A DNA stretch of 64,000 nucleotides from Tetradesmus obliquus (lineage: Eukaryota > Chlorophyta > Chlorophyceae > Sphaeropleales > Scenedesmaceae). Positions 3,873 to 53,977 of this stretch are shown piece after piece. Position 1 is the first letter of the stretch, and each line of letters begins with the position of its first letter. Position numbers and translations under genes: made by a program. The stretch covers positions 2,764,501 through 2,828,500 of the forward strand of contig CP126201.1 of assembly GCA_030272155.1 (NCBI GenBank). The letters run 5' to 3'. The notes below the pieces were generated by a model that saw only the letters and a list, made by a program, of their open reading frames with translations, did not search any database and was not told the DNA's origin.

Positions 3873-5412
3873 ATGGGGAAGGCAACTGTCAAAAGCAGTC
3901 AACAGCACCCAGCAACAGCTGACGCTTGCCGGCTTGCGGCCATCGATCTCAGCAGCCAAAGAAGCGAGTATATCTTTCAACTCCCATCGGGGCTGCGCCG
4001 ACTCGGCCTGAGCTTGCTGCTAGACGAACGAGATGAGCCAGCACTCCACCTCCTGTGCAACGTTCTCTTCACCACAGTGCCCGCAGCTGTGCTCCTGCAC
4101 GCATTTAGAGTCCAATCGCACTGTATTGGTCTAGCCTACTTCGTTGTCAACTACGTGCTGTTCCTCCAGCGCTTCCTGCTGACGCTGCACTACACTGAGC
4201 ACAGGAAGCTGTTCAAACCAAGTAGGTGCAGAAACTGGTGGTGCCCATAATCTGCAGAACTGGCAGGTCTTCCATCAGCATGGTTGGGGCGTTCTGTGTT
4301 GTTGTTTCAGCATGCAGCAACAGCAGCTTGGTAGGGCATGCACCATGCTGCTGCATCAGTGCAACCACCGCCAGCTGGCAGGCTGCAGTTGTGCACACCA
4401 CCTGCACTCAATGGAGGCCCCAGCTGCTGGGGTTTGATGCCTGGAATCAAGCTGCCAGCATGACATGCGTCATCACATGAGCAGCAGCAGCATCGGGCAA
4501 TCACGCACTCCTTGCTGGGCCGATGCACACCTGGGCATTCATGTGCCGCTGCAGACAGGGGCCTCATGCAGCCCCTGCTGCTCCCACTTCACACACCAAC
4601 CAGCCATGCAGCAGTGACAGCGCATACCTCACAAATCGTTCACCCTCTATCCCCGCCTGCCGCCAACAGCAACTTGGTCCCAACGCTCAAACCCACCACA
4701 CCTGTTTGGATTGACAGCTTTGACCATGTTTGACCATGACTTTTCTCCTGCAGGCTGCGGCTGGCGCAATCACCCCTGGCGCCCTACCTGCTGACGCCGC
4801 TGTTTGACCTCATGTTTGACCCTTTTCCTGCAGACTGCGGCTGGCTCAATCACCTGGCGCCCTACCTGCTGTCGCCGCTATTTGGCGTGCCAGCTGGCGC
4901 GTACCGGCTGCACCATGTGGTGATGCACCATGTGGAGGACAACGCATGGGGCTGGGACCTGTCCTCCACTGAGGGCTTCCGGCGGGACAGCCTGGCCGGC
5001 TTTGTCTTGTGAGTGCACCAAATAACAGCACTGAGCAGCACTAAGAGTAGCAGCGCAGCAATAGCTAGAAAAGTGCTGTGTTCTGTGAACGAAGCACAGC
5101 AGCACTGAGTGGGCGCAACAGCTTTTAGTGCAGCTGCACCACGCTGTCATGTGCCGCGTTCAGGACAATGCTTGGGGCTGGGACCTGTCATCCACTGAAG
5201 GCTTCTGGCGGGACAGCCTGGCAGGCTTTGTCTTGTGAGCAAACTTTATGCTAAGCAGCAGCAGGTGCAGCAGCGCAACAGCCAGCACGGAGCTGCGGCT
5301 TGTGGGTGGCTGCTTGTGCTGAGGCATGCACGACACAGCAGCAGCAGGTGCAGCAGCACAGGCCGCACTCAACACCTGTCTTGCCTTCTGTGCTGCCCCC
5401 TGATGATTTGCC

Positions 5413-5465
<53 letters not shown>

Positions 5466-6133
5466 AGCTACTGGCTGCGCTTCCTGCTGGTGAGTGGCAT
5501 TGAGCTGCCGCTGTATGCGCTGCGCCGCAGCCGCCACAGCCACGCAGCCACAGCAGCAGCAGCCATGGCTGGCGGCTGGCTGCTCACAGCTGTGCTGTGG
5601 CAGCGCTGTGCTGTTGCCACTTTCTACACGCTGCTGCTGCCGTACCTGGTGTCATCTTTCGCGCTAATGTTTGGCAACTGGTGAGCGGCGAGCGGCCTCA
5701 GCTCAGCAACAGCAGCAGTGCTTCAGCTTGCTGAGTGCTTGTGTAGTGGTCAACCACAGATGCATGTGTTGCTTCCGTACTCGTGGCTGCTGACTTTGCC
5801 TGCTGTGGTTCATGACGGACGCATGGTTCCATGTGTGCCATATGCTGCTTTACCTCCCAAGCTTGTAACAACAAGCACCACCTGAGACGCAACCATAGCA
5901 ACCCACGGCTGCCTCAATGCTACTGCTGCTGCTGCTGCGTGCAGGAGCCAGCACATCTTTGTTGACATGGATGCGCCCTGCCACAACCACAGCCTCACCT
6001 ACGACTGCCCGACTGCAGCTGCTGCTGCTGCTGCTTGCAGCAGCCAGCACATCTTTGTTGACCCAGATGCGCCGCGTGACGACTACAAGCTCACCTACAA
6101 CTGCCTGGCCTGCCCCGACAACCCCAAGACCTG

Positions 6134-6188
<55 letters not shown>

Positions 6189-6804
6189 GCAGGAGCCAGC
6201 ACATATTTGTGGACCCTGATGCGCCTCGTGACGACTACAAGCTCACCTACAACTGCCTGGCCTGCCCCGACAACCCTAAGACCTACAATGACGGCTACCA
6301 CATCATACACCACGCCAACAGCAGGCTGCACTGGAGCGAGATGCCTGCTGCATTCGTGCAGCAGCTGGAGCTGCATGATGCCAAGGACGGTGAGTTTGGC
6401 CTTTTTGAATCGTATATATGTTAGGTTTGTTTGCCCCAACCTTGTTATGACGCTAGTTGGCCAGCAACGCGCACATATGCAAGTGTACAAGTTTCAGCGG
6501 ATGCTGAATATAAGGTACAAGGATGCTGTAGTGCTGTCAATCAAACTGCCACTGACCTGCTGCCACCTGTCTGCCCCGCCTGCCAACCTGCTGCTGCTCA
6601 ACTGCCGTGCTCACAACTGCAGCGCTGGCGTTCAAGGGCATAGGGTTCTTTGATGTTGGCCTTGCAGTGTTCACTGGCCGCCTGGGCTGGCTGGCTGACC
6701 GCATTGTGCCTTGCGGGCCCAAGCAGGCAGCGCGCAGCAGGCAGGAGTGGGTGCAGCTGCTGCAGCACCGGCTGCAGCCTGTCACTCGCGTGAAGGTGGC
6801 ATAA
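3873..6804 (+). CDS. Membrane fatty acid desaturase-family protein
   Basis: Five exons: 3873-4221, 4834-5008, 5468-5680, 6193-6389 and 6623-6804 (stop TAA), all GT-AG and in phase; 371 residues. The histidine boxes of the integral-membrane desaturase/hydroxylase fold are visible: YTEHR at the end of exon 1, HHVVMHHVEDN in exon 2, and GYHIIHH in exon 4. Hydrophobic segments lie between them (exon 1 before the first box; the GGWLLTAVLW and TFYTLLLPYLV stretches in exon 3). FGNWSQHIFVDP joins exons 3 and 4. Such enzymes bind two irons and oxidise acyl chains in the ER or plastid membrane; substrate and position cannot be read here. The start at 3873 (MGKATVK) was chosen because the reading frame just upstream is low-quality; an upstream in-frame ATG at 3768 would add 35 residues. 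Introns carry tandem copies of the edges of exons 2 and 4. Confidence 0.85.
4733..4882 (+). repeat. Acceptor-side tandem copy of desaturase exon 2
   Basis: Two direct copies about 80 bp apart of a unit made of TTTGAC, a pyrimidine-rich stretch, CTGCAG and the exon start (TGCGGCTGGC...CGCCCTACCTGCTG). The second, starting at 4834, is in phase and runs on into the full exon. The first has lost one base and the frame. Confidence 0.75.
5164..5234 (+). repeat. Donor-side copy of desaturase exon 2
   Basis: A second copy of the 3' part of exon 2 (codons for DNAWGWDLSSTE through FVL), again followed by GTGAGC and preceded by a CAG acceptor-like site. It sits in the intron downstream of the full exon (4834-5008) and has only a few substitutions. 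Confidence 0.8.
5413..5466 (+). repeat. (CTG)n microsatellite at an intron 3' end
   Basis: An uninterrupted CTG run that ends as the CTGCAG acceptor of desaturase exon 3, so the triplet tract takes the place of a normal polypyrimidine tract. Confidence 0.85.
5944..6389 (+). repeat. Three acceptor-side copies of desaturase exon 4
   Basis: Copies begin after CAG at about 5944, 6039 and 6193. The first decays after about 50 bp. The second runs to CCCAAGACC and then TGA. The third is the complete exon with the YHIIHH box. (CTG)n tracts separate the copies. Confidence 0.8.
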
Positions 6805-7531: not shown

Positions 7532-7961
7532 ATGAACAGCACCGTTATCCTCGTCTTGTGCGTGGCTGCCGTAGTGGCGCTGGCCGCGCCGACACAGGTA
7601 GCCATATCATTTTATGCTTGAAGATTATCGTAACGAAATGTGTTTGGTACGCTCGAACGGCTGTAGCTGACAGTGCCTAACAGTGTCAGCAACAGCAGCA
7701 TGCCCAGACAGTGCTTCATTGCCCTGAGAGCAAAACCTGGGTGCAGGGAATGACCGTTTAAGTCTCTGATATCGACTCCCTGCTGTGTGGCCAGTCTCTG
7801 CATCAGCACTTATGTTCATTGTCACCAGGCCATTTAAAGATTGCCAGCAGCAGCAGGTGCAGTGCGCTGCACCTTCACCATGCATGCAATTCCAGTTAAC
7901 ATGCATGGCACAACCAAACAACCAATCAGTTTCACTCTTGTCTGTTAGCAGTGTTACACCA

Positions 7962-8022
<61 letters not shown>

Positions 8023-8617: not shown

Positions 8618-11364
8618 GCAACAGCCTGGGTTCCAGCAGGCTCGTCCGCTTATGATGTGTAGGACTTGAAGCAGCGGCAGGCAGCGCGCGCAGCACACAG
8701 CTGCATGCACCTCCTTGATGCGGCCAATGCACTGTTCAAGTGGAGAGGAGTGTGCTGGCAAACAGGCTATTGATGGTAAATACATACTTGATCTTGCCGG
8801 TGCATCTGCTCTGCTGCAGGCGCTCAATGAGTTTGTGAAGCAGATGAGCATGAGCGGCAAGGAGTTCATGTCTCGCAAGCAGCTGGTGGACCTGGTGGTC
8901 AGCTACCACTTCATCCCAGGTAAGCCGCCCGGACTTTATGTCCAGCACAGTTAAGGCCAGCACATCTCCTGAAACAGCCATAGGTAGCCGTGTTCATCCA
9001 TGCAGCCTAGGTCACAGCAGCTGGTGGACCTGGTGGTCAGCTACCACTTCATCCCAGGTGGGGCTGGCAGCAGCAGCAGCACCAGCAGCAGCAGCAGCAG
9101 CAGCTTTAGGACACATTAATCAGTGATATGTTGTAGGTGTGGCCTGGTGGTCAGCTACCACTTCATGCCAGGTGGGGCAGGCAGCAGCAGTGTGGCTTCC
9201 AGGTTTGTCTGTTGCAATCTGAACTGCTGTGACTGCCACCGAATCCAGTGGACGCCATGCTGCCTGCATCCTGCCACGGCTGGCCAGCCACAGCTGCCTC
9301 TGGCCCAGTGAAGCTTAGAATTGGTCTGCTACTGACCCTGCGCTGCTCTGCTGTCCCCACCCTACCTGCACCTTCATCACCTGCACTTGACTTCATGTGA
9401 TCAGGCTACCATTGGTCTGCTCCTGACCCTGCGCTGCTCTGCACCTGCGCATGCTCGTTACATGCACATGTACTGCTGCTATCAGGCTACCAAGCCAAGT
9501 CCATCGAAGATGTGCCTGGCAACCCCACCCTGGCATTTACTGCTGACTTCAACTACGTGCGCCACTCATCTTGGTGCATTTCTCGTATGGCTGCCAAGTG
9601 TGGGACTGACCTCTCTGCTGCCCTGGTGTCCCTCCGCTCTGCTGCCTTCACCTGTACACACACCAGGCTACCAGGCCAAGTCCATTGATGACGTACCCGG
9701 CAACCCCACCCTGGCAGTTACTGCAGATTTCAACTATGTGCTGCGCTTCTACAAGGGCAGCGGGCGCGTGTGGGTCAAGGACGTGCAGGGCAACGATGTG
9801 CCCATCAAGCAGAAGCCGATCCAGTTTGGCCAGCTCAGCGTGATTCCAATTGACCGGGTGCTCATGTCTGGCGGCTACTTCTTCAACGGCCTGGTGAGCG
9901 CAGTGGTTTGTTATCCTTGTGTGGGTGGCGGTTGGGGTGGCGGTGGTTGTTCTGGATTGCAGCAGGTGCAGAGGTCGAGTGATAGTGAAGGGTGACACAG
10001 CATGCATGTGCTGCGCTTCTACAAGGGCAGCGGGCGCGTGTGGGCCAAGGACGTGCAGGGCAATGATGTGACAATCAAGCAGAAGCTGAGTCAGTTCGGT
10101 CAACTCAGCGTCATTCCAATTGACCGGGTGCTCATGTCTGGCGGCTACTTCTTGAACGGCCTGGTGAGCGCAGTGGATTGTTTTCATTGTGGGGGTGGGT
10201 TTGGGGTGGCGGTAGTTGTTCTGGATTGCAGCAGGTGCAGAGGTCGAGTGATAGTGAAGGGTGACAGAATGCATGTGTGTGGCTTCTTCAATGGCAGCGG
10301 GCGCATGTGGGTAGAAGACGTGCAGGGCAATGATGTGACGATTAAGAAGCCGATTTAGTTTGGCCAGCTCAGCGTGATTTCAACTGACCGGGTGCTCATG
10401 TCGGGCGGCTACTTCTTCAACGGCCTGGTGAGCGCAGTGGTTTGTTTGTTTTTCCTTGTGGGGGGGTGGGGGTTGGGGTGGCGGTAGTTGTTCTGGATTG
10501 CAGCAGGTGCAGATCAAGTGATAGTGAAGGGTGGCACGGCATGCATGTGTGTGGCTTCTACAAAGGCAGCGGCCGCATGTGGACCAAGGACGTGCAGGGA
10601 TACGATATGACAATCAAGCAGAAGCCGATTCAGTTTGGCCACCTCAGCGTGATTCCGATTGACCGGGTGCTCATGTCTGGCGGCTACTTCTTCAACGGCC
10701 TGGTGGGGGGGTGGGGATGCGGAGTTGTTGGCATGAAATGTGGCAGTCTTGTGCACACTATACACGCTGGAAAAACCCAGAAATCCCAACAAACACAAGC
10801 TAAAATTGCTTGATCACTCTCCTTTGACAGCTGCCCATTGCGGTCTGCGTCCTTTCAGCAAAGCCAGGTAGCACAGGGTGCCGTATTACTGAACGGCGGC
10901 TGCTACCACCGCCACCGCCACCGCCACTACTGCTGCTGCTGCTGCTGCAGGATGCGCTGAAGCAGTACCCGCAGTGGTCTGAGGCATTCCAGCTGGCAGA
11001 GCAGGCCGGCTGGCCAGTTAGCAGCGACAAGTCAGACATCACCATGTTTGTGCCAAGTGAGTTGCTATTGCAACTGTTCAAACCTGCGCAGCCACCCTTG
11101 TGGTGTGTTTGCCCAGCAATGGCCGTTGCTCGCTTGACTGACGCTTTGCTGCTGCTGCAACAGTGGCAGCAGCAGAACGCGCTTGGAGGACACCATAACC
11201 AGAAGCGCCAGCACACACCTCAACTCTGTGCTGCACTGTCCCGCATTAAAACATGCATCCCGCACACACATTCGCGCTGCTATTACAACACTGCCTGCCT
11301 GCAGATAATGGTGTGATCTCTGCTGTGCCAAGGCTGCCTGGGTCGGCCTGAGCAAGGCGCAGCA

Positions 11365-11396
<32 letters not shown>

Positions 11397-13402
11397 ACCA
11401 CTTTGTGCATTGCATCATCGCATGACACCCACACACAATCACACTGCTATTGCCTCATTCCCTGCAGACAATGGTGTGCTCTCTGCTGGTGTCAAGAAGC
11501 GCCAGCACAAAGCCAACAGCTGTGCCGCACTGTTCTGCACCAGCGCATGCCACCCACACGCTGTACCAACATTCATGCTATTGTTTCATCACTGTCTGCC
11601 TGCAGACAATGGTGTGATCTCTGCTGGTACCAAGGCTGCCTGGGAGGGCCTCAGCAAAGCACAGCAGAAGCAGCAGCTTCTGTACCACTTTGTCAAGCCA
11701 GCAATGAGCGTGCCTCAGCAGCTGAAGAGTGGCAGGCTGCCAACCCTGCTGCAGGGGCACGACTTGAAGGTGGTCGTCACCCCAGCACAGTGAGTGCGGT
11801 TTAGAGTTGACCATGGGAGGGAGTTTGACTATGAAATTTTTTCTTGAATGGATTTTGAGTTGGAGTGAGAATGGGCCGGGGACGCAGGGTTGACCTGCTG
11901 TGTTTAGCAGAAGGCGCAGTGCTGAGCAACCGCAGCCGTTACCTCTGTGGCTGTTGCGGTACGGCAGTACGCATTGACACAGCATTGTGCGCTGCTATGG
12001 CAAAGTGACAGTTGAGTGTGCTGCTGCTGTTGTCTGCAGCCGCTGTGATCTGATGCCAGATGTGTGCCTGTCGCAGCACTGCCGCCCCCACGGCAACGAT
12101 ATACTGCCTGCTGCTATGCTGCTTGAAACCTGGTGTGCTGCTGCTGCTGCTGCTGCTGCTGTGCCCGGCAGGGCCAAGGACGGCGTGCCAAAGGTGACAG
12201 TCACTCCGGAGGTTGGCGGCCCGGTGTCGGTTGAGATCTTCAACATCTTCGCTGGCAGGGTGAGCGGCTGGCAGTTTGACTGGCAGTTGACTAGATGTTT
12301 GACCGGCGGTTGACCTGAGTGTTGACTGGCAACTGATGCATGTCATGATAGTGTTTGCACTGCTTGTTGCGGCCCGGTGTCAGTCGAAATCTTCAACATC
12401 TTCGCTGGCAGGGTGAGTGGCTGGTACCTTGAATTGCAGCCTGACTAGATGTTTGACCGGCGGTTGACCTGAGTGTTGACTGGCAACTGATGCATGTCAC
12501 GATAGTGTTTGCACTGCTTGTTGCGGCCCGGTGTCGGTTGAGATCTTCAACATCTGCGCTGGCAGGGTGATTGGCTGGTGACTTGAATTGCAGCCTGACT
12601 AGATGTGTGACCGGCGGTTGACCTGAGTGTTGACTGGCAACTGATGCATGTCACGATAGTGTTTGCACTGCTTGTTGCGGCCCGGTATCGGTTGAGATCT
12701 TCAACATCTGCGCTGGCAGGGTGAGTGTCTGGCATATTGACTGGCAGTTGACTGGCAGTTGACTGGAAGCTGACTCAAAGTTGGCTGGTTCGCAGTTGGC
12801 TTGTAGTTGACTAGCACATGATGTCATGGTACATGGCATTGCTTGAAAGTGCTTGCATGTGCTGTCACTGTACAAAGATCCCTTTTACATGGCATGTTGG
12901 TGTTGGTGTTTGCGCTGCTGTTTATTGCTGTCCATGCAACCTGCGCCCAATGCAAGCACAGCAGCACTCCCATGCAAGACAAGAAGCTTAGCAGCAGTCG
13001 AGGCTCCAAGCGAAAGCCAAGGCATGCTGCACTTCTGTATGATGCGGGCGCTGACTGCCTGCCACCATTTGCTGCTGCTGCTGCTGCTGCTGCCGCTGCT
13101 TCCAGGCAATCCTGCAAGGTGTCAACGGACCTTTGCAGGCCAAGCTCCCAGGCGGCATCACAACAGAAGCAGCACCAAAAGCCAACGGCCGCCGCTCACT
13201 GCTGTACCGCGGCGGCGGCCGCTACAGTGGCTCTGGTTACAACCAGGCTACTGCAAACTCGATTGCTGCAACGAACACGGCAGCAGCCATTGATGCAGCA
13301 GCTAGCGGTTATGTGCCAGCTCGTGCTGCGACTGCTTATGGTTCATATCAGGCGGAGGCGGCGGCATCGTACGGCAATCATTGCTACAACTGCTACTGGT
13401 GA
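7532..13402 (+). CDS. Secreted fasciclin (FAS1) two-domain protein
   Basis: Eight exons: 7532-7597, 8025-8159, 8820-8919, 9667-9893, 10951-11056, 11606-11789, 12172-12259 and 13106-13402 (stop TGA). All are GT-AG and in phase, giving 400 residues. Exon 1 encodes almost exactly a signal peptide (MNST, a hydrophobic VILVLCVAAVV core, Ala-rich end). Two FAS1-like repeats follow. Repeat 1 shows TLLVPSDKALNEF and VVSYHFIPG; repeat 2 shows ITMFVPNNGVISA and LLYHFV, matching the conserved H1 and YH motifs of FAS1. The C-terminal exon adds a Gly/Tyr/Ala-rich low-complexity tail ending HCYNCYW. FAS1 proteins mediate cell-matrix or cell-cell adhesion; in volvocine algae some act in the extracellular matrix. 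Export is inferred from the signal peptide. Nearly every exon edge has extra tandem copies in the flanking intron. Confidence 0.85.
7968..8024 (+). repeat. (CTG)n tract forming a 3' splice site
   Basis: Long CTG run ending in CTGCAG immediately before FAS1 exon 2. Confidence 0.85.
8025..8503 (+). repeat. Three donor-side copies of FAS1 exon 2
   Basis: The full exon (8025-8159) is followed by copies at 8252-8350 and 8458-8503. Each ends at the same donor (GACAAG then GTGAG) and carries the first part of the intron (GTGAGAAAACTGTCAGGCCC). The third copy is preceded by a long (CAG)n run at about 8409-8457. Confidence 0.85.
8888..9171 (+). repeat. Donor-side copies of FAS1 exon 3
   Basis: The end of exon 3 (CTGGTGGTCAGCTACCACTT, then CATCCCAG and GT) recurs at about 9017-9057 and 9141-9171. 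Confidence 0.8.
9403..9740 (+). repeat. Acceptor-side copies of FAS1 exon 4
   Basis: Starts resembling the exon 4 acceptor and GCTACCA appear at about 9404 (short), 9489 (about 70 bp, coding for the YQAKSI start) and 9667 (the full exon). Confidence 0.7.
9738..10702 (+). repeat. Four-copy array of the 3' part of FAS1 exon 4, about 270-bp period
   Basis: The coding part (FYKGSGRVW...GGYFFNGL) recurs ending at about 9893, 10163, 10427 and 10702. The intervening intron sequence (GTGAGCGCAGTGG..., a G-rich stretch, TTCTGGATTGCAGCAGGTGC) is repeated with it. Copies 2 and 4 keep an open frame; copy 3 has small deletions and a stop. Confidence 0.9.
11306..11650 (+). repeat. Three acceptor-side copies of FAS1 exon 6
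   Basis: The CTGCAG acceptor plus ACAATGGTGTG start recurs at 11306, 11468 and 11606, together with upstream intron sequence (AAGCGCCAGCACA...). Only the 11606 copy completes the exon. Confidence 0.8.
12212..12725 (+). repeat. Four-copy donor-side array of FAS1 exon 7, about 156-bp period
   Basis: The end of exon 7 (GTCGGTTGAGATCTTCAACA...CTGGCAGG then GTGA) is repeated four times with about 110 bp of intron (TTGACCGGCGGTTGACC...). The downstream copies are more alike to each other than to the first. Confidence 0.85.
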
Positions 13403-25373: not shown

Positions 25374-25404
<31 letters not shown>

Positions 25405-38273: not shown

Positions 38274-38347
<74 letters not shown>

Positions 38348-41300: not shown

Positions 41301-42418
41301 AGCAGCAGCGGCGGCAGCAGCAGCAGCAGCAGCGGCATGCGGCGAGGATCGGGTTTGTGGGGCAGTCGCCGTGGGTGATGCGCGGCAGCGTGAGGGACAA
41401 TGTGCTGCTGGGGCAACCCTATGATGCAGAGTTCATGGGAGAGGTGGGTGGCTGTCAGAGGGCAATGCGTGTTTTGTGTTGTTCGATTGGTTGCTGGCTG
41501 CGCAAGGCAGTGATGTGGTGAGGCTGGCAAAACCCGGACCTGCTTTGTATGATCAGCCCCCGATTGCTTATCTCGCTCTTCCTGATGCCGCGTGCATGTT
41601 GCGCGGCAGCGTGAGGGACAACGTGCTGCTGGGGCAACCATACGATGCTGAGTTCATGGGAGAGGTGGGTGCAGGATGATTTAAGTTTCCATGACGGGTG
41701 TCCTATGTTATGTAGGTTTCAAGGTTGCTGGCTGGCTGCCCACGGCAGTGACTTGGCGTCGTTTACACGGCTGCTGGCAACGCCTGGGCTTGCTTTTGCA
41801 TGATCAGCTCCCATTCCAATCTGATAATGTACTTGCAATGCGTACATCATGCGCGGCAGCGTGAGGGACAATGTGCTGCTGGGGCAGCCATACAATGCAG
41901 AGCTCATGGGGGAGGTGGGTGGATTTGTAGCTGAGTTTCTAGGCTTGCACGGAAAGGTGTCCTATGTTTTGCCTGTGCATGGTTGGTTGCTTGCTGCTTG
42001 CTGGCTGCAGTGATGTGCGTGCAGAGTTCATGGGCGAGGTGAGCTTATGTGATGCGAGGTGTATAGTGTTTGCGCGTGGATTGGTTGCTAGCGGCGCACG
42101 GCAGGGATCTGGTGTGGTTCTGCAACGCCGCTTCTGAGCTCCTGGGCTGCTGTGCATGTCTAGTTCCCATGCCCTGATATCCTCTCTTATATCCTGCACA
42201 TGCTACTTGACACATGTTGCCTGGTACCTGCGGTGCTGCTGCTGCTGCTGCGGCGGCTGCTGCTGCTGCTGCCGCCAGATCCTGCATGCCTTGACCAAGA
42301 CCTAGCAGCCATGCCGGCAGGTGACCTCAGCCCCGTAGGAGATGCCGGGCAAGGCATGTGCAAAACTCATCTCAATCGTCAAAATGCTGCTGCTGCTGCT
42401 GCTGTGCTGCTGCTGCTG

Positions 42419-42451
<33 letters not shown>

Positions 42452-42555
42452 ATCCTGCACGCTGTGGGGCTAGATCAAGACCTGGCAATTATGCCAGCTG
42501 GCGACCTCAGCCCTGTAGGAGACGGCGGCCACGGCCTGTTGACATTCAACTCAAA

Positions 42556-42603
<48 letters not shown>

Positions 42604-42851
42604 ATCCTGCATGCAGTAGGCCTTGACCAAGACCTGGCAGCCATGCCAGCTGGCGACCTCAGCCCAGTGGGCGATGGCGGGCAGGGCCTGTGGGCACTCG
42701 ATTCAATTGCTCGATTTGCTACTGCTGCTGCCGCTGCTACTGCCAGATCCTGCATGCAGTAGGTCTTGACCAAAACCTGGCAGCCATGCCCGCTGGCGAC
42801 TTGAGCCCTGTAGGAGACGGCGGCCCAGGCCTGTCTAACACTCAACTCAAA

Positions 42852-42887
<36 letters not shown>

Positions 42888-43760
42888 CAGATCCTGCACG
42901 CTGTGGGGCTTGACCAAGACCTAGCAGCCATGCCAGCAGGCGACCTCAGCCCTGTAGGAGATGGCGGCCAGGGCCTGTCAGGCGGGCAGCGGCTGCGGCT
43001 GGCTCTTGCGAGGGCGCTGTACCAGCCTGGCACAGACACTTACCTCTTTGATGACATACTTGCGAGCTTGGATGGGCATGTTGCACAGGTGAGAGGTGTC
43101 TGCACAGGGGTGGTATACACAGGAGTGATCCGGCATTGTAGTGGTGGCCGGCTCCACTGTAGTGGTGGCCACCAAGCACCTCATCGTAATCTAGCTGTGC
43201 TAGTGAATACTACTCAGTGCTAATCAATCCGAACTGCTGAGTAGTGGCCCTTTTGTTGCTGCTGCAGTGGGTGATCCGCTACGCGCTGTTTGCCGGGCTA
43301 CTGGCTTGAGTATTTGACAGCAACGGCCTCTGACTCGTGCTGCTGCTGCTGCTGCCGCCAACTGCAGTGGGTGATCCGCCACACACTTTTTGGTGGGCTG
43401 CTGGCTGGTTCTACAGTTGTGGTGGCCACCAAGCACCCGCTGGTCATTCAGGCTGCTGCGCTGGTAGTTGCGCTGGAGCACGGCAGGGTGGCATTTGTGG
43501 GGTCCCCGCAGGGCTACGCACACTGGAAGGCACTGCAGGTAAATTGAGATTGCAAGGCGCAGCATGGATCAGTGAGACACAGCAGGGTGTTTGGAGCAGG
43601 GGACTGTCTGGCTGGGCGAGTGATTGGATGAGTAGGTGTGTGAGGCATGAATGGAGACAGTCATGACAGCTAGCGTCACCAATGAGAATGAATGAGCGAG
43701 ACAGTGAGTGTCCGGGGCCTTGAGCAAGCAGGCAAGGCTGCTGATGTGGCAAACCTGTGC

Positions 43761-46021: not shown

Positions 46022-48394
46022 TCGCTGTTGTCTCTGCAGTGGCACCCTGCTCCCATTGATGCCGAGATGGCTCACTTCCTGAAAGGACTGGGCATCATAG
46101 CAGGTGGGTGCAACAGTCAATCTTTTGTGAACAGGTTGTGCTCATTTCAACTGCTTGCATGTGCATCCCAGCACTGTCTCCAGCTGTGATGCCAGTCTCA
46201 GCAGCTGCTGCGCTGGCAACTGAACTTGTGTTTCCCGCTTGACTCACTGCAGAGATGTCCTTAGTACGCGTGCTCACAGCTGCTGCTGCTGTTGATGTGT
46301 TCATCAATCGCGCAGGCCTAAACACGCTGGCCACGTTGCCGCGCGCTTGCAGCTTTGCTGCGGCAGATATGGCTCAAGTACATATGCCGGCGCCTATCAT
46401 TGCTGTTGTTATTCGTGTTAGTCATAATCAGCTAATCAATCATCTCTGTGCATGATCGTGTCGTAACTGCAGGCCTCAACACGCTGGCCACGCTGGCGCG
46501 CGCCTCCAGCTTTGCTGCGACAGACATGGCTCAAGTACATATGCCGGCGCCTACCATGGTTGTTGTGTTGTCGTCATCAGCTAATCAATCATCTCTGTGC
46601 ATGATCGTGTCGCAACTGCAGGCCTCAACACGCTGGCCACGTTGGCGCGCGCCTCCAGCTTTGCTGCGACAGACATGGCTCAAGTACATATGCCGGCGCC
46701 TACCATGGTTGTTGTAATCGTGTTGTCGTTATCAGCTACTCAATCATCTCTGTGCATGATCGTGTCGTAACTGCAGGCCTCAACACGCTGGCCACGCTGG
46801 CGCGCGCCTCCAGCTTTGCTGCGACAGACATGGCTCAAGTACATATGCCGGCGCCTACCATGGTTGTTGTGTTGTCGTCATCAGCTAATCAATCATCTCT
46901 GTGCATGATCGTGTCGCAACTGCAGGCCTCAACACGCTGGCCACGTTGGCGCGCGCCTCCAGCTTTGCTGCGACAGACATGGCTCAAGTACATATGCCGG
47001 CGCCTACCATGGTTGTTGTAATCGTGTTGTCGTTATCAGCTAATCAATCATCTCTGTGCATGATCGTGTCGTAACTGCAGGCCTCAACACGCTGGCCACG
47101 CTGGCGCGCGCCTTCAGCTTTGCTGCGGCGGGCATGTCGGCAGCGCGCAGCATGCACGCGCGGCTGCTGGCGGCGGTGCTGGCCGCGCCGATGGCCTTCT
47201 TCGACGCAAACCCCGCAGGCCGCATCCTGAACAGGTGCGCTTGTTGTGTTCAGTCAGGTGCATTTGTTGTATTGACTAGGTCACAAGGCATACACACATC
47301 ATGTTGTCTGCAGCACTTGCGTGTGCACTGGCCGCGCCGATGGCCTTCTTTGACGCAAACCCCGCAGGCCGCATCCTGAACAGGTGCGCTTGTTGTGTGT
47401 GATTAGTCAAAAAGGCCCACAAACATCATGTTTGCAGCTGATTGCATGTGCGCTGGCCGCGCCGATGGCATTCTTCTACGCCAACGGCGCAGGACGCATC
47501 CTGAACAGGTGGGGTAGTTGTCCGGCTGTAAGTTCAAAAGGCCCACAAACATCACGTTCACAACACCTGCATGGCTGCACCCATGGCCTTCTTTGACGCA
47601 AACCCCGCAGGACGCATCCTGAACAGGTGCGCTTGGGATAACCAGGACAGGTTCAATAAGGTCAAAGGGCCCACAAATAGCATGTTGTGTGCAGCAATGG
47701 CATCCGTGCTGGCTGCGCCGATGGCGTTCTTTGACGCAAACCCCGCAGGACGCATCCAGAACAGGTGTGTCGGCGAACAACTTGACCTGCATGCGATTGT
47801 GCCAGCAAGCATGCACGCAATGGGCTTTGCTGAAGCATGCTGTGCTACTTGAAGCTGCACTGCATACTACGCAGCATCACCTTTGTTGCTGTTCAATTTC
47901 TGCCGCAGGTTTTTCTCTGACACCTCCATGGTGGATGACTCGCTGCCGTTCATTGCCAACATCCTGCTGCTGCTGCTGCTGCTGCTGCTGCCGCTGCCGC
48001 CGCCGGTTTTCCTCTGACAATTCCATGGTTGATGACTTGCTGCTGTTCATCGCCAACATCCTGCTGGCCAATGCAGTCAGCCTGGCAGGGCTGCTGGCGG
48101 TGCTGCTGCTGCCGCTGCCGCTGCTGCTGCCACCGTCGCTGGCAACATGCGCTTCTGCTTCCTATTCTTCACCAACCGCTTTTATTATTCCCTTGTCATC
48201 GTATTCTTCCCGCTTTGCCGCAGGTTTTCCTCTGACACATCCATGGTGGATGACTCGCTGCCTTTCATCACAAACATCTTGCTGGCCAATGCAGTCAGCC
48301 TGGCAGGGCTGCTGGTGGTGCTGCTGCTGGGGCAGCCGCTGCTGGCCGCGCTGCTGCTGCCGCTGGGCGTGGCGTACAGGTGTGTTTACACAGC

Positions 48395-48439
<45 letters not shown>

Positions 48440-50957
48440 GGTGTGTGTCGATGCTTTGTGTGTGTTGGCGGTGCTGCTGCTGGGGCAGCCGGTACTGGCC
48501 GCGCTGCTGCTGCCGCTCGGCATAGCTTACAGGTATGTAATTATATGCGCTGCTGCTGCTACTTCTTCTGTTGGTTGTGTGCTTGTCACTGTCTGTTGCG
48601 TTGTGCTGCTGCTGGGGCAGCTGCTGACAGCGCTGCTGCTGCCGCTGGGCGTAGCTTACAGGTGTGTTTCACAGCAGCATGCTGTTGGGTGCGTGGTGAT
48701 GCTTTGTGTGTGTCGGGTTGTGCTGCTGCTGGGGCAGCCGGTACTGGCCGCGCTGCTGCTGCTGGGCATGGCGTAGCCTACAGGTGCGATTGTGTGTGTA
48801 CCGCTGCTGCGTATCTCGTGTTGGAACGTGTGTGTTGCGGCAGCCGCTGCATTGCTGCTGTCTCTGGGCGTGGCATACAGGTGCCATCGTGTGTGTACTG
48901 TAGCTGTTTATCTCGTGTTAGAATGTGTTGTTTGGTGCTGCTGCTGGGGCAGCCGCTGCTGGCGGCGCTGCTGCTGCCGCTGGACGTGGCCTACAGGTGC
49001 GTAGGCACATCATGCTGCTGCGGTCGCGGCCGTTGCTGCTGCTGGTTGCCGGTGTGCTCGACACTGTTTGTGGCGTTGTGAGCTGCTGGCAGCGCTGCTG
49101 CCGCTACTGGGCGCGGCATACAGGTGAATTATCCGCTGTGTGACGGCTAAATGCAAACAGCACCTGCAGCGGTGCAGCATGGGCACCGTACTGTTGAAGC
49201 AGCTGCTCGCCATGCATCTTTGTCTATGAAAGCTAGCATCAGCGTCACTGCAAGCAGCTGGCCAGCATGTGCTGTCATTGTTGTGTGTCATTTCCAGGTG
49301 GCTGCAGCTGTTCTACAGGGCGTGTGCCAGGGAGCTGCGCCGTCTAGAAGCTCAGGGGCTGTCCCCACTGTACAGCATACTAACAAATACTTGTGTTGTT
49401 ACGTTCTTGTTACTTTTATGTCATTTCCAGGTGGCTGCAGCTGTTCTAAAGGGCGTGTGCCAGGGAGCTGCGGCGCTTAGAAGCGCAGGGGCTGTCCCCA
49501 CTGTACAGCATACTACAACTGTTGTAACCTGGGTTATCTTCTTGTCATTTTCCGTGCTTTATAGGTGGCTGCAGCTGTTCTACAGGGCGTGTGCCAGGGA
49601 GCTGCGGCGGCTAGAAGCGCAGGGGCTGTCCCCACTGTACAGCCTGTTTGGCGAGGCACTTGCAGGGGCACCCACCCTACGCGCAGCAGCAGCGCAGCGT
49701 CACTTTATGAAGGTGCGATAGATTCAGGCTTCTGGAGTTGTACAAAGCTTAGAATTGCTTGCAACACTGTTTGAGGAGGCGCTTGCAGGAGCGCCCACGC
49801 TGCGTGTAGCAGCAGCGCAGCACCACCTTATAAGCGTAACATATCTTTACGATAGCTGTATTTGAGGCATCTCTTGCACAAAGCTCTTGCACAAAGCTCT
49901 TGCACAAAGCTCTTGCACAAAGCTCTTGCACAAAGCTCTTGCACAAAGCTCTTGCACAAAGCTCTTGCACAAAGCTCTTGCACACAGCTCTTGCACAAAG
50001 CTCTTGCACAAAGCTCTTGCACAAAGCTCTTGCACAAAGCTCTTGCACAAAGCTCTTGCACAAAGCTCTTGCACAAAGCTCTTGCACAAAGCTCTTGCAG
50101 CATTGGCGCCAGTACATGCAAATCCTGCGGCCGCCCTTTGCTTGCGTCACTTTTCATGTCTCGTTTCTCATGCTTCACATCTGCCCTCATTCGTTCATGC
50201 GGTCTGCCCACGTCATCTTTTACCATATTGTTCAAGGTTGCCTGCAGCACCGGCCGTGAATACCACCCTGCTTCCAGGTGAACCTGTTGCTGCTGCTGCC
50301 AATGCACACCATGCAGCGCTTCCTGCTGCTGATGGAGCCATACCAACTGGCCTCCGCCAGCAATGCAGCAGCATCAAACTGGCTGGGCGCAAGGCTGCAG
50401 CTGCTGGCGGCTGTGCTGCTGTCTGCTGTTGCTGGCCTGGCAGCAGCAGTTGCGGCATCTGCGGCAGCTGGCAACATACTCGGCGCTGCTGCTGTTGGCA
50501 GCAGCAGTGTGTTAGGCTTCTATCCATCTGGCAACACCGGTGATCAGCATTACACCACTGTCAGCGGCAGTACTGCATATGCAGGCAGTACAGGCAGTAC
50601 AACATACGCAGGCAGTACAGGCAGTACAAGTGACAACGGCTCATTCTCATCTTCCTGGGCAGGCAGTACATTCAGAATCAATCTGCTAGGGCTTGCCCTG
50701 GCGTACTGCCTGCCAATCGTGCAGCTACTAAATGGCCTGCTAAGTAGCTCTGCAGAGACAGAACAAGAGATGGTGGCAGTCGAGCGTGTGGTGGCCTATT
50801 TGGAAGATATAGAGCCAGAGGAGCGGCAGCAGCAGCGGCAGCAGCTGGTGCAAGTGAGGCCAGCTGACTCAGCAGCAGCAGCAGCAGCAGCAGCAAGGGA
50901 CACAAAAAGAAGAGCAGCAGGCAGCAGCAGCTTGCAGGAGCCTCTCCTGCAGGAGCC

Positions 50958-50996
<39 letters not shown>

Positions 50997-53977
50997 TGGG
51001 CCGGCGGGTGCCGCATTCGCGTTTGTGGGCGTGGTGATGCTTTACAGGCCGGAGCTGCCTCCTGCGCTGAGGGGGGTGAGCTTCAGCGTGCAGCCTGGCC
51101 AGAAGCTGGGCATCTGTGGCAGGACAGGTGAGCAGGCAGCAGCAGCTGTTTGCTGCGAGTTGGGACACCATTGGAGCACATGACATGCATGCTGGGGGGT
51201 GAGCTTCAGCGTGCAGCCTGGCCAGAAGCTGGGCATCTGCGGCAGGACAGGTGGGCTGAGGTGGCAGCAGCAGCAGGATGTTTGGGTTTTTGCTGAGATG
51301 GCTGAACGCAAATGCAACACATGGATGCAACATGAGTGCAATACGTGCATTGCATACTGGGGAGTCAGCTCCTGCGTGCGGCTTGGCCAGAAGCTAGGCA
51401 TCTGCGGTCGCACAGATGGGCTGGGGGCGCAGCAGCAGGATTCGACTGCTTGCTCAGCTGGAGTGAGATGCATATGCATGCGTGCAAGGCAATCGTGTTG
51501 TGCAGATCTCATCGCTGTGGAGATTGCGACTGCTGTGCCAACCGCACACCACGCTGTCACATTTTCATAGTGCTGCTGTGGCGCGATGCCCTCTGTTATC
51601 CCCGTTCGCGCGCGAATGCAGGTGCCGGCAAGAGCTCCATTGTGTCAGTGCTGCTGCTGCTGCTGCTGCTGCTGCTGTCAACATGTGCTTGCTGCTGTGC
51701 CACAACTCACCCCTATCGCCGCACACATGCAGGTGCCGGCAAGAGCTCCATTGTGTCGGCGCTGCTGCGCCTGCGGCCCATCCAGTCAGGGTTCATCGTG
51801 GTTCAGGGCGACGACGCCTCAACCCTAAACCTCAGGGAGCTGCGGGGGCGGTTTGGGGTTGTGCCGCAGAGCCCTGTGCTGTTTAGTGGCAGCATAAAAG
51901 ATAACCTGGACCCATATGGGAGGGCAAGTGACGAGCAGCTCACGGCAGCACTCCAGGCGGTGCATATGTGGGCGCCGCTGTGCCGCGCAGCGCTGCAGCG
52001 AGGTGTGCTCACTCACGGCACATACCTGCTGGCTCGCAAGGCAGGCTCATCTAGCTGCCTCACAGCAGCAGCAGCAGCAGCAGCAGCAGACCAGCCGCTG
52101 CCACCAGCAGCAGCAGCAGCAGCAGCAGCCAATGAGGCTGCAGCAGCGCCAGATTGGTGGGATGCAGCCAGCACTGGAGGCCCGCTGACAGCAGCGGAGC
52201 TTGCGGAGGGTGCTGCTGCTGCTGTGGGTGATGCAGCAGGCAGGGCGGCAGCTACTGGGCAGCTGCGAGGCCGGCGGCAGCAGCAGCAGCAGCAGCGGCG
52301 GCAGAGTGTGGAGTTCCCGCCTGTGCCGATGGGTGCTGCCCAGAAGGTGCTGGACCTGCAGGTGAGCCTGCAATGCTGCATTTGATGCAGCATTATACAA
52401 GCCAATGTGCAGTTGCCTTCGGGTTCGAGCAGTGGTTTGATTGTGATAGTTGTGAATTGTGGTTGCGCTGCGTGCATTCTGACACGTTTCTGGTTGCCCA
52501 GCATGACTACACTATGCCAACACTATGCCAACATGCTCTGATTAGGAATTTTGCAAAAACATTGAAGCCACGCTGCCGGCTGTCCTGCCTTGTGTTCTGA
52601 TTGTGCAGCAAACCACCACCTCCATTCTCCTGAAGACTCGGTGCTCCTGCGAGTTCTGCAATACAGGAACATGAAAATGTTTACTTGCTGTTGTTTGCTG
52701 CATAACCATTGTGCAGGTCTGCGGCAGTGCCCGGCTGCAGCTGTCATCAGGCCAGAGCCAGCTGGTGTGCCTGGCAAGGCTGCTGCTGCGCGCTGCACCA
52801 CGGCCAACTAAGCACGCTGCTGTGTATTTCTTTGGCTGTGCAGCAAATCACCGCGTGCCGATCCATTTCTGCAGTGACTACTACTTCTCGTTGCAGTACA
52901 GCAACACGCAACACACCTGCTGCCATCCTGCAACCTGTTTGCAGGTGTGTGGCAGTGCCGGGCTGCAGCTGTCATCAGGCCAGAGCCAGCTGGTGTGCCT
53001 GGCAAGGCTGCTGCTGCGCGCCGCGCCGCTGGTGCTGCTGGACGAGGCAACAGCAGCGGTGGACCCACGCACAGCAGCGCTGATGCACCAGGTGCGTGAC
53101 GGAACAACCACAGTGTATGTTGTTGTGTTTTGGCAGCAGCAGGGTGTGCATTCCATGTGTGAAATGGCAGCCTGCCGCACTGCAGCTGTGAGTTGTGTTG
53201 CATGGTGTGGCTTAGTGTGGCGTTGCATTGCTGCTGGATGAGGCGACAGCAGCAGTGGACCCGCGCACAGCAGCGCTGATGCACCAGGTGCTTAGTGTGA
53301 AAATGATAAAGCAGCATCAACAAGCTGTGTGCTTACTGTGTGTGATTGCAATGCTGTTGACGAGGCAACAGCAGCGGTGGTCCCGTGCACAGCAGCACTG
53401 ATGCACCAGGTGCTGAGCTTCAGGCTGCTGCGGCAGCATCAACCCATGCGCATTGAAGGATTCTGCTGTGCTGCTGAGGCGCTGTGCTTCCTGGGGCATG
53501 GGCAATGGAACAGCCGCTGCAAGCTTTCTTTGCAGGATTGCTGGTTGGCAGCCAGGAACTATACATGCATATGCCCCACGCTGTGAACCGTACAGTATGC
53601 CCATAGATGCAGGAGCAACAAAGATAAAGGCTTGAGATCTGAGAGGATGTTCCTGCTGTGTGCTGTTGACACGCCTGCAGGTGCTCCATGAACAGCTGGA
53701 TGTGGCACACCCGCCTGCTGCCAACGGCAGCAGCAGCAGCGGCAGCAGCCAGATAGCAAAGCAGCAGCCGACAGTGCTGCAGATTGCCCACGAGCTGACT
53801 GCAATCATTGAGTATGATGCTGTAGTGGTGATGGCAGCAGGGAAGGTGGTGGAGAGCGGCAACCCAAAGCAGCTTGCGGCACAGCAGGGCAGCAAGTTTG
53901 CTAACCTGCTGGCACAGGCGGGGTACCACCACCAGCACGATGAGGGTGCGGTGCTGCAGCAGCAGCAGCAACCGTGA
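34312..53977 (+). CDS. ABCC/MRP-type full ABC transporter
   Basis: Exons: 34312-34455, 34793-34876, 35445-35806, 36290-36479, 36903-36983, 37513-37629, 38382-38527, 39195-39597, 41141-41443, 42891-43088, 43368-43538, 43796-43860, 44245-45283, 45479-46103, 47081-47234, 48224-48379, 49565-49712, 50278-51127, 51733-52361, 52945-53091, 53681-53977. All are in phase; about 2100 residues. Order is TMD1-NBD1-linker-TMD2-NBD2, with no extra N-terminal TMD0. NBD1 (about 510-733) has GEVGSGKSS, GFVGQSPW, LSGGQ and LFDDILASLD. NBD2 has GRTGAGKSS (split by intron 18), VPQSPVLFSGSI, LSSGQ, LLDEATAAVD and IAHEL. ABCC pumps export organic anions and conjugates; Asp for the catalytic Glu in NBD1 is normal for them. 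Unusual length comes from Gln/Ala/Ser inserts, chiefly the 347-residue linker exon 13. Exon 18 could instead begin at 50317. Confidence 0.9.
35070..35475 (+). repeat. Five-copy acceptor-side array of ABC exon 3
   Basis: TTGCGCTGCAG plus CTGCTCAATGACGG(G/C)CTCAC recurs at about 35087, 35187, 35275, 35365 and 35445, spaced 80-100 bp. Between copies is TGTGCCGCAGCACTGACGCT. Only the last copy leads into the open exon. Confidence 0.9.
36240..36280 (+). repeat. (CTG)n tract before ABC exon 4
   Basis: CTG run followed by ACTCTGCAG, the acceptor of exon 4. Confidence 0.85.
36440..36755 (+). repeat. Four donor-side copies of ABC exon 4
   Basis: The exon end (CTGCAGATTGCTGCAGCAAT, then GTGGCTGCTGTATGTGCAG and GT) recurs in part at about 36525-36550, 36590-36630 and 36680-36751. 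The last copy also repeats the upstream TGTGTCTCTTTCCA(T/C)GAGCT. Confidence 0.85.
37250..37835 (+). repeat. Four copies around ABC exon 6
   Basis: Two acceptor-side copies (37252 and 37394, coding for AASVSLxAAxDAxLGLMGQLL in altered frames), the full exon 37513-37629, and a donor-side copy at about 37764-37835. Confidence 0.85.
37916..38771 (+). repeat. Five copies around ABC exon 7, with a long (CTG)n tract
   Basis: Acceptor-side copies at about 37916 and 38091, the full exon 38382-38527, and donor-side copies at about 38597-38646 and 38715-38771 (GGCACTACGTTTGGGCTGAT to CAGCCGCTCAG). A (CTG)n run of about 70 bp lies at 38276-38347. Confidence 0.85.
38957..39345 (+). repeat. Two copies of ABC exon 8 start
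   Basis: A near-intact 130-bp copy of the exon start begins after GTGCAG at 38957, is in the same phase as the full copy (39195), and runs open to a TAG after the LLLP codons. It could give a truncated alternative product. Confidence 0.85.
39776..41205 (+). repeat. Ten-copy acceptor-side array of ABC exon 9
   Basis: The acceptor plus TC(C/T)CT(G/C)CA(C/T)CCC...GCTGGCCATCC...GGCTGCCT recurs ten times, starting near 39779, 39908, 40071, 40200, 40351, 40544, 40690, 40827, 40975 and 41141 (spacing about 130-195 bp). Copies at 40544 and 40975 share an identical extended block. The last copy alone continues into the Walker A exon. Confidence 0.9.
41349..42045 (+). repeat. Four donor-side copies of ABC exon 9
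   Basis: The exon end (GCGCGGCAGCGTGAGGGACA...TTCATGGGAGAG then GTGGGT or GTGAGC) recurs at about 41605-41664, 41850-41915 and 42019-42041, with related intron blocks (GGTTGCTGGCTG; CGCCTGGGCTTGC-like). Confidence 0.85.
42278..42980 (+). repeat. Five-copy acceptor-side array of ABC exon 10
   Basis: (CTG)n, CCAG and ATCCTGCA(C/T)GC...CTTGACCAAGACCTAGCAGC through GACCTCAGCCC...GGAGATGGCGG recurs at about 42278, 42453, 42602, 42747 and 42891. Each earlier copy breaks off just before the ABC signature codons, which only the last copy contains. Confidence 0.9.
43140..43430 (+). repeat. Partial copies of ABC exon 11
   Basis: The start (TGGGTGATCCGC) occurs at 43268 and 43368, and a later piece (CCACTGTAGTGGTGGCCACC then AAGCACC) at about 43150-43180. 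Confidence 0.75.
46315..47160 (+). repeat. Six-copy acceptor-side array of ABC exon 15 with near-identical units
   Basis: The acceptor plus GCCTCAACACGCTGGCCACG starts at about 46315, 46473, 46621, 46777, 46926 and 47081. Copies 2-5 form a higher-order repeat: the 304 bp from 46448 and the 304 bp from 46752 encode the same 89-codon open frame without change. This marks recent duplication. Confidence 0.9.
47165..47770 (+). repeat. Five donor-side copies of ABC exon 15
   Basis: The exon end (GCGCCGATGGCCTTCTTCGA...GGCCGCATCCTGAACAG then GTGCG) recurs ending at about 47234, 47381, 47509, 47627 and 47765, with CAAAAGGCCCACAAACATCA-type intron blocks between. Confidence 0.9.
47911..48300 (+). repeat. 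Three acceptor-side copies of ABC exon 16
   Basis: Starts resembling GTTTTCCTCTGACACATCCA and GGTGGATGAC at about 47911, 48006 and 48224. Confidence 0.85.
48310..49125 (+). repeat. Seven donor-side copies of ABC exon 16
   Basis: The exon end (TGCTGCTGGGGCAGCCG...GCGCTGCTGCTGCC...TACAG then GT) recurs ending near 48379, 48531, 48661, 48783, 48881, 48997 and 49121, the last ones shortened. Confidence 0.85.
49299..49840 (+). repeat. Copies of both edges of ABC exon 17
   Basis: Acceptor-side copies (GTGGCTGCAGCTGTTCTA...GGGCTGTCCCCACTGTACAG) start at about 49300, 49432 and 49565 (full). A donor-side copy (GAGGCGCTTGCAGGAGCGCC and on) lies at about 49772-49835. Confidence 0.85.
49871..50097 (+). 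repeat. 13-bp minisatellite, 17 copies
   Basis: CACAAAGCTCTTG is repeated head to tail 17 times from 49877 to 50097 with a single visible variant (CACACAG... near 49981), led by CTCTTG at 49871. It is in ABC intron 17 and ends as CTCTTGCAG, a usable acceptor. Confidence 0.95.
51063..51420 (+). repeat. Three donor-side copies of ABC exon 18
   Basis: The exon end coding for VSFSVQPGQKLGICGRT and its donor recurs at 51063-51127, 51192-51250 and 51359-51415. The third copy reads CAGATGGG instead of a GT donor. Confidence 0.85.
51621..51770 (+). repeat. Two copies of the Walker A exon start (ABC exon 19)
   Basis: ATGCAG plus GTGCCGGCAAGAGCTCCATT occurs at 51621 and 51733. The first copy runs into a (CTG)n tract; the second continues through the exon. 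Confidence 0.85.
52720..53411 (+). repeat. Copies of both edges of ABC exon 20
   Basis: An acceptor-side copy starts at 52718, the full exon is 52945-53091, and donor-side copies of the Walker B/D-loop part end at about 53289 and 53411 (GACGAGGCAACAGCAGCGGT and similar, then CACCAG and GTGCT). Confidence 0.85.

What the first reader, a model, noticed from the sequence alone, without database searches (positions are those of the whole stretch)
4733..53411. Exon-edge tandem arrays fill the introns of six consecutive genes
Seen directly: in the desaturase, FAS1, BAR-like, Cys-rich and ABC genes, introns contain tandem copies of the neighbouring exon edge, each with exon piece + splice site + intron piece. 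Acceptor-side copies lie upstream and donor-side copies downstream of the one complete exon. Copy numbers run from 2 to 10, and copies decay with distance. This happens on both strands and in unrelated families, so it is a property of the locus or genome, not of one gene. Inference: a mutational process (repair or slippage anchored at splice-site or CTG-rich motifs) makes local duplications at exon-intron junctions, lengthening introns and creating decoy or alternative splice sites. I know of no named process that produces exactly this.
Basis: partly seen in the sequence, partly recalled or inferred. Interest (0 to 1): 0.88.

Follow-up and report, generated by a model that had tools for sequence, protein, structure and literature searches.

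The report
Stacked exon-end copies fill algal introns
In the genes examined of one green alga, many introns hold extra copies of the end of the neighbouring exon, each with a good-looking splice site, which is odd because such copies should either disturb splicing or decay.

Summary
In five genes with homology-defined exons (ABC in the window, four CCT genes elsewhere), 49 of 118 splice junctions and 36 of 59 introns carry copies of the adjoining exon end, 92 in all. Corrections: (1) most copies lack a detectable intron piece (27 of 47 acceptor-side, 38 of 45 donor-side), yet keep near-consensus splice signals; (2) 49 of 52 arrays involve an exon edge; random duplication plus purifying selection gives 41-67% with length-matched introns, but fixed 100- or 200-bp starting introns reach 87-100% and 67-96%, with fewer arrays and shorter genes than observed. 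Acceptor-side copies fit neutral decay; donor-side copies show extra amino-acid constraint. Inner edges show no excess of splice sites, so copies are not mini-exons. It is found elsewhere in the genome but is gene-dependent: 17 of 30 CCT/Cpn60-family loci, 3 of 30 kinesin loci. Mechanism and function are unproven; transcripts are needed.

The parts
5952..6280 (+). desaturase-like gene: two acceptor-side copies (5952-6009, 6048-6128) upstream of the exon head at 6200-6280
9745..10705 (+). fasciclin-like gene: four copies of a 152-bp coding block every ~270 bp; side not settled
23225..23874 (-). BAR-like exon (query 23225-23345) with five copies of its head at higher coordinates (upstream on the minus strand)
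24378..25484 (-). second BAR-like exon (query 24549-24683) with six acceptor-side copies (24744-25484) and one downstream copy of its other end (24378-24428)
39769..41200 (+). ABC NBD1 exon head (41131-41200) and nine upstream acceptor-side copies
42228..42979 (+). tandem copies ending in the ABC exon QILHAVGLDQDLAAMPAGDL..., matched to ABCC transporters
46312..47127 (+). acceptor-side array of ABC exon 47081-47234; young, intron part included
47081..47234 (+). complete ABC exon (GLNTLATLARAFSFAAAG...DANPAGRILNR)
   Evidence: spliced alignment to P0002
47170..47767 (+). donor-side copies of the same exon
47901..48344 (+). acceptor-side copies of ABC exon 48224-48379
48310..49126 (+). donor-side array of ABC exon 48224-48379; CTG-rich, counted but not among the copies
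49286..49643 (+). acceptor-side copies of ABC exon 49565-49712
49644..49831 (+). donor-side copy of ABC exon 49565-49712; its donor is not intact
51071..51438 (+). donor-side copies of ABC exon 50598-51127
51616..51777 (+). acceptor-side copy of ABC exon 51733-52361
52704..53027 (+). acceptor-side copy of ABC exon 52945-53091
53033..53413 (+). two donor-side copies of ABC exon 52945-53091
12216..12788 (.). tandem array, unit 154 bp; exon relation not determined
19000..19492 (.). tandem array, unit about 99 bp; exon relation not determined
28333..28926 (.). tandem array, unit about 248 bp; exon relation not determined
35075..35470 (.). tandem array, unit 89 bp; exon relation not determined

Best explanation
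In T. obliquus, short segments spanning exon-intron junctions are duplicated locally; a duplication there is one of the few kinds that leave the protein intact. The copies then persist as unpaired, splice-competent exon ends. Shown: in five genes copies sit at exon ends, usually keep AG or GT and near-consensus signals, have no more splice sites at their inner edge than random intron, and go with longer introns. Inferred: the exon part and its splice signal are held in place by occasional use in splicing (clearest donor-side) and/or by exchange with the real exon, while spacer sequence between copies turns over. Some arrays (ABC 46312-47127, one copy of CCT2 exon 9) are simply young tandem duplications with the intron part still present. 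The exon part plus splice site is the unit that survives; the mutational trigger is unknown.
For: 49 of 52 arrays touch an exon edge. Random viable duplications simulated with length-matched introns give 0.41-0.67 (20 replicates, D 0.3) and 0.42-0.64 (20, D 0.5); with those introns halved 0.58-0.88 (20). Donor-side copies match their own intron at +1 to +8 with 0.96, 1.00, 0.96, 0.58, 0.84, 0.44, 0.40, 0.33; unrelated junctions give about 0.25 from +7 on. Among copies without detectable flank homology, GT is kept in 36 of 38 and AG in 24 of 27; donor score 2.96 versus 3.72 for true donors and -3.87 for random intronic GT; acceptor score 3.88, 7.13 and -5.28. Donor-side exon-copy differences by codon position 16/17/78, one copy per array, 21 arrays; p=1.6e-4 against a neutral share of 0.53, 1.1e-3 without CCT4 exon 12, 0.02 without four arrays. 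CCT4 exon 12: five copies, 35 of 35 differences in the last 110 bp at third positions, the same 21 residues repeated.
Against: No transcript data; use of any copy is unproven. Fixed starting introns of 100 bp (0.87-1.0, 6 replicates) and 200 bp (0.67-0.96, 6) can give the observed edge fraction without any targeting, though with 19.5 and 25 arrays and 3.8- and 5.1-kb genes against 52 and 7.9 kb. Acceptor-side copies fit neutral decay (31/33/72, 28 arrays), so constraint is not general. All 8 indels inside aligned exon parts shift the frame, and 4 of 1688 copy codons are stops. The longest CCT4 copy has a Glu-to-Gly change outside the 110 bp counted. Donor-side copies have no excess of acceptors at their inner edge (19 of 45 versus 249 of 515 random windows), so how they could be translated is unexplained. 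Acceptor signals of copies are weaker than true ones (p=0.006).
Confidence: 0.4

Rival explanations
1. Random short tandem duplications occur everywhere; only those that leave exons intact survive, so copies are found at exon edges and in introns, and all are neutral relics.
For: The acceptor-up, donor-down geometry follows automatically. Acceptor-side codon pattern is neutral. Simulations with fixed 100-bp and 200-bp starting introns give 0.87-1.0 and 0.67-0.96 edge arrays (6 replicates each).
Against: With start lengths matched to the data, 40 replicates never exceeded 0.67 (observed 49 of 52), and 20 with halved lengths never exceeded 0.88; fixed 300- and 400-bp starts gave 0.50-0.69 and 0.43-0.71 (6 each). 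Introns without edge copies are long enough (median 275 bp) for purely intronic duplications, yet only 3 of 52 arrays are purely intronic. Flank homology is undetectable while exon parts stay at 93% or more in 15 of 38 donor and 9 of 27 acceptor copies.
Confidence: 0.18
2. A mutational process is aimed at exon-intron junctions (for example paired nicks with filler synthesis, at transcription-linked structures or splice-site-like motifs) and makes exon-limited copies; no selection on the copies (closest to the first reader).
For: Junction anchoring. Exon-limited boundaries even in young copies. Tight spacing: the nearest copy lies 85-164 bp from the junction in 39 of 49 cases. Gene dependence: 17 of 30 CCT/Cpn60-family versus 3 of 30 kinesin loci, Fisher p=2.5e-4 on partly overlapping loci.
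Against: Does not explain near-consensus splice signals that differ from the copied donor at +4 and +6, or the third-position excess in donor-side copies.
Confidence: 0.25
3. Old tandem duplications whose exon parts are kept young by gene conversion from the real exon, while intron parts have diverged beyond recognition.
For: On average, copies with higher exon-part identity do not have more similar flanks. The near 2:1 codon pattern of acceptor-side copies is what exon-to-copy conversion followed by decay gives.
Against: Conversion limited by homology should not restore GT/AG and +5G beside unrelated flanks. It bounds the third-position share at about one half, exceeded by donor-side copies.
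Confidence: 0.13
4. Assembly or collapse artefact.
For: Tandem repeats are error-prone in assemblies in general (recalled).
Against: The CCT4 exons recovered here rebuild two public T. obliquus proteins exactly. The pattern recurs on several contigs, with 1 inverted pair in all sequence examined.
Confidence: 0.02

Closest known systems
[quoted passage not shown] potato RdRp case, PMC4974935, passages seen)
   Same: A tandem duplication overlapping an intron-exon structure supplies ready splice signals and can leave the protein unchanged.
   Different: There the duplication makes a new intron (in potato with an inserted exonic stretch). Here copies lie inside existing introns as unpaired exon ends, several per gene.
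Introners (PMC9860276, abstract start in a search listing)
   Same: Large-scale change of intron content by repeated sequence.
   Different: Introners copy themselves into many genes. The one array tested here (ABC 46312-47127) has a single match in the whole genome, itself.
Tandemly duplicated, mutually exclusive exons (recalled)
   Same: Neighbouring copies encoding nearly the same peptide; donor-side copies with third-position differences.
   Different: Copies are one-sided exon ends with no excess of a second splice site.
Splicing decoy exons linked to intron retention (search listing only; content recalled)
   Same: Splice-competent sites inside introns that are not normally used.
   Different: Those are cryptic exons; these are copies of the adjoining exon's own end, in direct repeat.
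Short tandem duplications from repair of adjacent single-strand breaks in plants (recalled; search listing only)
   Same: Direct, local duplications, sometimes with filler.
   Different: No preference for splice junctions that I know of.

Membership tests
Intron gain by tandem duplication (Rogers model) | a new intron whose two splice sites come from the two copies of a duplicated exonic AGGT segment | tested here: inconclusive
   Inner edges of copies show no excess of acceptors (19 of 45 versus 249 of 515 random windows) and few donors (2 of 47 versus 126 of 511); an AGGT inside each copy was not searched for systematically
Intron gain by tandem duplication (Rogers model) | local direct duplication overlapping coding sequence | tested here: met
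Introner family | similar sequence at many unrelated loci | tested here: not met
   One whole-genome DNA search with one array of one gene gave one match, itself; other arrays were not searched
Mutually exclusive tandem exons | each copy bounded by both acceptor and donor | tested here: not met
Mutually exclusive tandem exons | copies under coding constraint | tested here: inconclusive
   Donor-side third-position excess; acceptor-side fits neutral decay; frame-shifting indels
Splicing decoys | splice-competent signal within an intron | tested here: met
   signal scores only
Splicing decoys | effect on splicing or intron retention | not testable with these tools
   no transcript data held
Intronic minisatellite | tandem unit without relation to exon boundaries | tested here: not met
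   49 of 52 arrays overlap an exon edge; the 13-bp array at 49871-50099 is a true minisatellite

The most novel reading that the evidence does not exclude
T. obliquus exons carry stacks of redundant, interchangeable ends: splice-competent copies of the exon's own terminal ~55 bp, donor-side ones held under amino-acid-level selection, so that the boundary of an exon is a small gene family rather than a single site.
Probability: 0.22. Interest if true: 0.9.

Novelty: new variant of a known kind. Interest (0 to 1): 0.72.

Why it matters
If copies of exon ends with good splice sites sit next to a large share of exons and splicing still works, this alga is a natural experiment on how the spliceosome chooses between near-identical sites. 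It also gives a concrete route by which introns lengthen in one lineage. It affects annotation too: public T. obliquus models of CCT4 (563 versus 536 residues) and CCT5 (551 residues; 536 in the Chlamydomonas, Raphidocelis and Haematococcus hits) include stretches that are copies of a neighbouring exon's end.

Tried and rejected
Inverted repeats: 1 pair in the window, none in the CCT, kinesin and random loci. Array as a dispersed element: one genomic match only, one array tried. Copies as mini-exons: no excess of splice signals at inner edges; where a strong acceptor occurs, mini-exon lengths fall 7/7/5 over remainders 0/1/2. Spacers keeping frame in CCT4 exon 12: no (reading). Event-level simulation gave 0.35-0.48 spanning events but counts extension of an array as a separate event, so it was replaced by sequence-level simulations. 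A codon-position test is void: the exon phase was not advanced; redone. Singleton tests are confounded by serial copying from an evolving exon and are not used as main evidence (80 of 149 at third positions; shorter branches 25 of 42; single-copy arrays 27/31/71, p=0.15 against one half). NG86 ratios (copy-copy 0.19, exon-copy 0.17) pool non-independent pairs and both sides. Codon-usage scoring was too weak for gene finding. Labels AR/BL are in contig orientation, because genome-search loci are not strand-turned (a script failed on this, settled); the loci counts are unaffected, but some loci overlap. Letters for an expression comparison (light-harvesting and proteasome genes) could not be fetched.

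Rows dropped before counts: matches judged simple repeats (on), arrays outside the gene models, introns under 80 bp and alignments under 24 bp or ending more than 12 bp from the junction (on); exon queries capped at 110 bp. One CCT8 exon model (exon 5) is doubtful and holds a stop.

Full report
What was checked. The window is G000:C11:2764501-2828500 of a 104.66-Mb assembly in 17 contigs. Contig C15 is 4,553,750 bases long, the contig length given for two public CCT4 proteins of Tetradesmus obliquus, and the CCT4 exons found here rebuild both proteins exactly. I therefore take the organism to be T. obliquus.

Repeats. Self-comparison of the window gives 144 pairs, 143 direct and 1 inverted; all but two direct pairs lie within 1.5 kb. 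By 4-kb tiles the window has 45 arrays (7.0 per 10 kb, 29% of bases). Thirty CCT/Cpn60-family loci give 8.3 per 10 kb, thirty kinesin loci 0.8, and twenty random 4-kb stretches 2.5, with 11 of 20 holding at least one array; loci of one gene overlap, so those densities are not independent, and the random arrays were not placed relative to exons. A copy of the matched exon's edge was seen at 17 of 30 CCT/Cpn60 and 3 of 30 kinesin loci (Fisher p=2.5e-4). The phenomenon is not confined to the window but strongly gene-dependent. I could not test whether expression level explains that.

Exons. The ABC gene is of the ABCC (MRP) type. A spliced alignment to a homologous protein of unnamed species (P0002) gave nine exons between 46067 and 53926. 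The same program with T. obliquus proteins gave CCT2, CCT4, CCT5 and CCT8; only CCT4 reproduced its public protein letter for letter. Together: 59 introns, 118 junctions.

Copies. A strict test (12 bp on each side of the junction) found 18 of 59 acceptors and 13 of 59 donors duplicated on the expected side. Four junctions showed only the opposite side, all at three exons that are short or doubtful (CCT5 exon 12, CCT4 exon 10, CCT8 exon 5). Searching each exon end against its own intron found copies at 49 of 118 junctions (28 acceptors, 21 donors), 92 copies, in 36 of 59 introns: ABC 7 of 8, CCT2 6 of 11, CCT4 7 of 14, CCT5 8 of 13, CCT8 8 of 13. Introns with copies have a median of 621.5 bp, those without 275 bp; copies themselves add part of this. 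The nearest copy lies 85-260 bp from its junction, 38 of 49 within 155 bp; the exon part is 25-110 bp, median 55.5, with the query capped at 110 bp.

Is it more than selection on random duplications? The side rule is forced: any other placing would break the exon. The informative number is how many arrays involve an exon edge. Of 52 arrays, 49 do (34 span a junction, 15 touch an exon). The other 3 are the 13-bp minisatellite, one long-distance match and one 78-bp array. I simulated random tandem duplications that leave exons intact, with neutral decay and the same detection. With starting introns reduced by the detected extra sequence (median 295 bp) and small indels added, the edge fraction was 0.41-0.67 and 0.42-0.64 (20 replicates each; 40 and 48 arrays, 7.0- and 8.3-kb genes); with those lengths halved, 0.58-0.88 (20; 34 arrays, 5.3 kb). 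With fixed starting introns and no indels (6 replicates each) it was 0.87-1.0 at 100 bp, 0.67-0.96 at 200, 0.50-0.69 at 300 and 0.43-0.71 at 400; the 100- and 200-bp runs had 19.5 and 25 arrays and 3.8- and 5.1-kb genes against 52 and 7.9 kb observed. So the anchoring goes beyond selection unless introns were only 100-200 bp when the copies arose, which I cannot exclude.

What is copied. Position by position, donor-side copies match their own intron at +1 to +8 with 0.96, 1.00, 0.96, 0.58, 0.84, 0.44, 0.40, 0.33, then near background; acceptor-side copies stay somewhat above background upstream (about 0.4 against 0.27). Copies with 93% or more exon identity lose homology as fast as the rest. 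Flank homology was detected in 20 of 47 acceptor and 7 of 45 donor copies. Clear exceptions are young tandem arrays such as ABC 46312-47127 and one copy of CCT2 exon 9. In copies without flank homology, GT is kept in 36 of 38 and AG in 24 of 27; donor signals score close to true donors and far above random GT, acceptor signals lie between. Over all 92 copies AG or GT is intact in 85, about what 5% neutral change would leave, so retention alone proves nothing; the unrelated flanks do the arguing. Over all acceptor copies pyrimidine content upstream is 0.61, true acceptors 0.63, random AG 0.49.

Codon pattern. If copies are neutral and the exon is constrained, about half of exon-copy differences should be at third positions (0.53 allowing for base composition, factor 1.13). 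Acceptor-side copies fit: 31/33/72 over 28 arrays. Donor-side copies do not: 16/17/78 over 21 arrays, p=1.2e-5 against one half, 1.6e-4 against 0.53, 1.1e-3 without CCT4 exon 12, 0.02 without four arrays. Sites variable among copies alone are 12/17/57 donor-side and 25/24/51 acceptor-side. In CCT4 exon 12, five copies downstream repeat the residues GGASPEVEVGYQLSKWSKTLR before GTGAG, and within the last 110 bp all 35 exon-copy and 32 copy-copy differences are at third positions; the longest copy has a Glu-to-Gly change further upstream. This suggests selection on those copies. Against it, all 8 indels in the aligned exon parts shift the frame, and I found no splice arrangement that would put the copies into frame.

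Not mini-exons. Donor-side copies have a strong acceptor near their inner edge in 19 of 45 cases, random intron windows in 249 of 515. Acceptor-side copies have a strong donor near theirs in 2 of 47, random 126 of 511 (Fisher p=4.9e-4). Copies behave as one-sided exon ends.

Annotation. Of the two public T. obliquus CCT4 proteins, the 563-residue one contains an extra 81-bp exon (6347-6427 of the gene region) that is the second donor-side copy of exon 12. The public CCT5 (551 residues; 536 in the Chlamydomonas, Raphidocelis and Haematococcus hits) includes a 45-bp exon inside a 94%-identical copy of the end of the exon before it. Whether these are real isoforms or gene-prediction errors cannot be told here.

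Literature. Ten full-text searches of the held open-access library listed no title or abstract start describing exon-end arrays of this kind; two of them returned no papers. Most subscription papers are not held. Passages of PMC4974935 were read: they state the Rogers model and a potato case where a duplicated intron-exon structure made a new intron. Other papers were seen only as search listings.

Judgement. The best-supported account is local duplication at junctions followed by persistence of splice-competent exon ends, with some maintenance on the donor side. A junction-aimed mutational process without selection is the main rival, and random duplication in once-short introns is not excluded.

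Noticed in passing
49871-50099: A pure 13-bp minisatellite (CTCTTGCACAAAG, 17.6 copies, 99% matches) lies inside an ABC intron.
   Followed up: no
whole window, e.g. 38275-38347, 6135-6187: Runs of CTG/CAG triplets are very frequent; several sit inside or beside exon-edge arrays.
   Followed up: no
54739-58833 and 61556-63124: Long uninterrupted reading frames (1365 and 523 codons); the last two 4-kb tiles (56-64 kb) have no local direct-repeat arrays.
   Followed up: partly
L055 (G000:C2:7429165-7432353): A kinesin exon (profile 263-326) has three extra partial matches to positions 260-289 on its upstream side, so the whole-genome table itself shows exon-end copies.
   Followed up: partly
G000:C15 CCT4 region, C12 CCT5 region: Public T. 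obliquus gene models include exons that are copies of the neighbouring exon's end (81 bp in one of two CCT4 models, 45 bp in CCT5).
   Followed up: partly
59286-59328 / 59549-59589: The only inverted local repeat pair found in the window.
   Followed up: no
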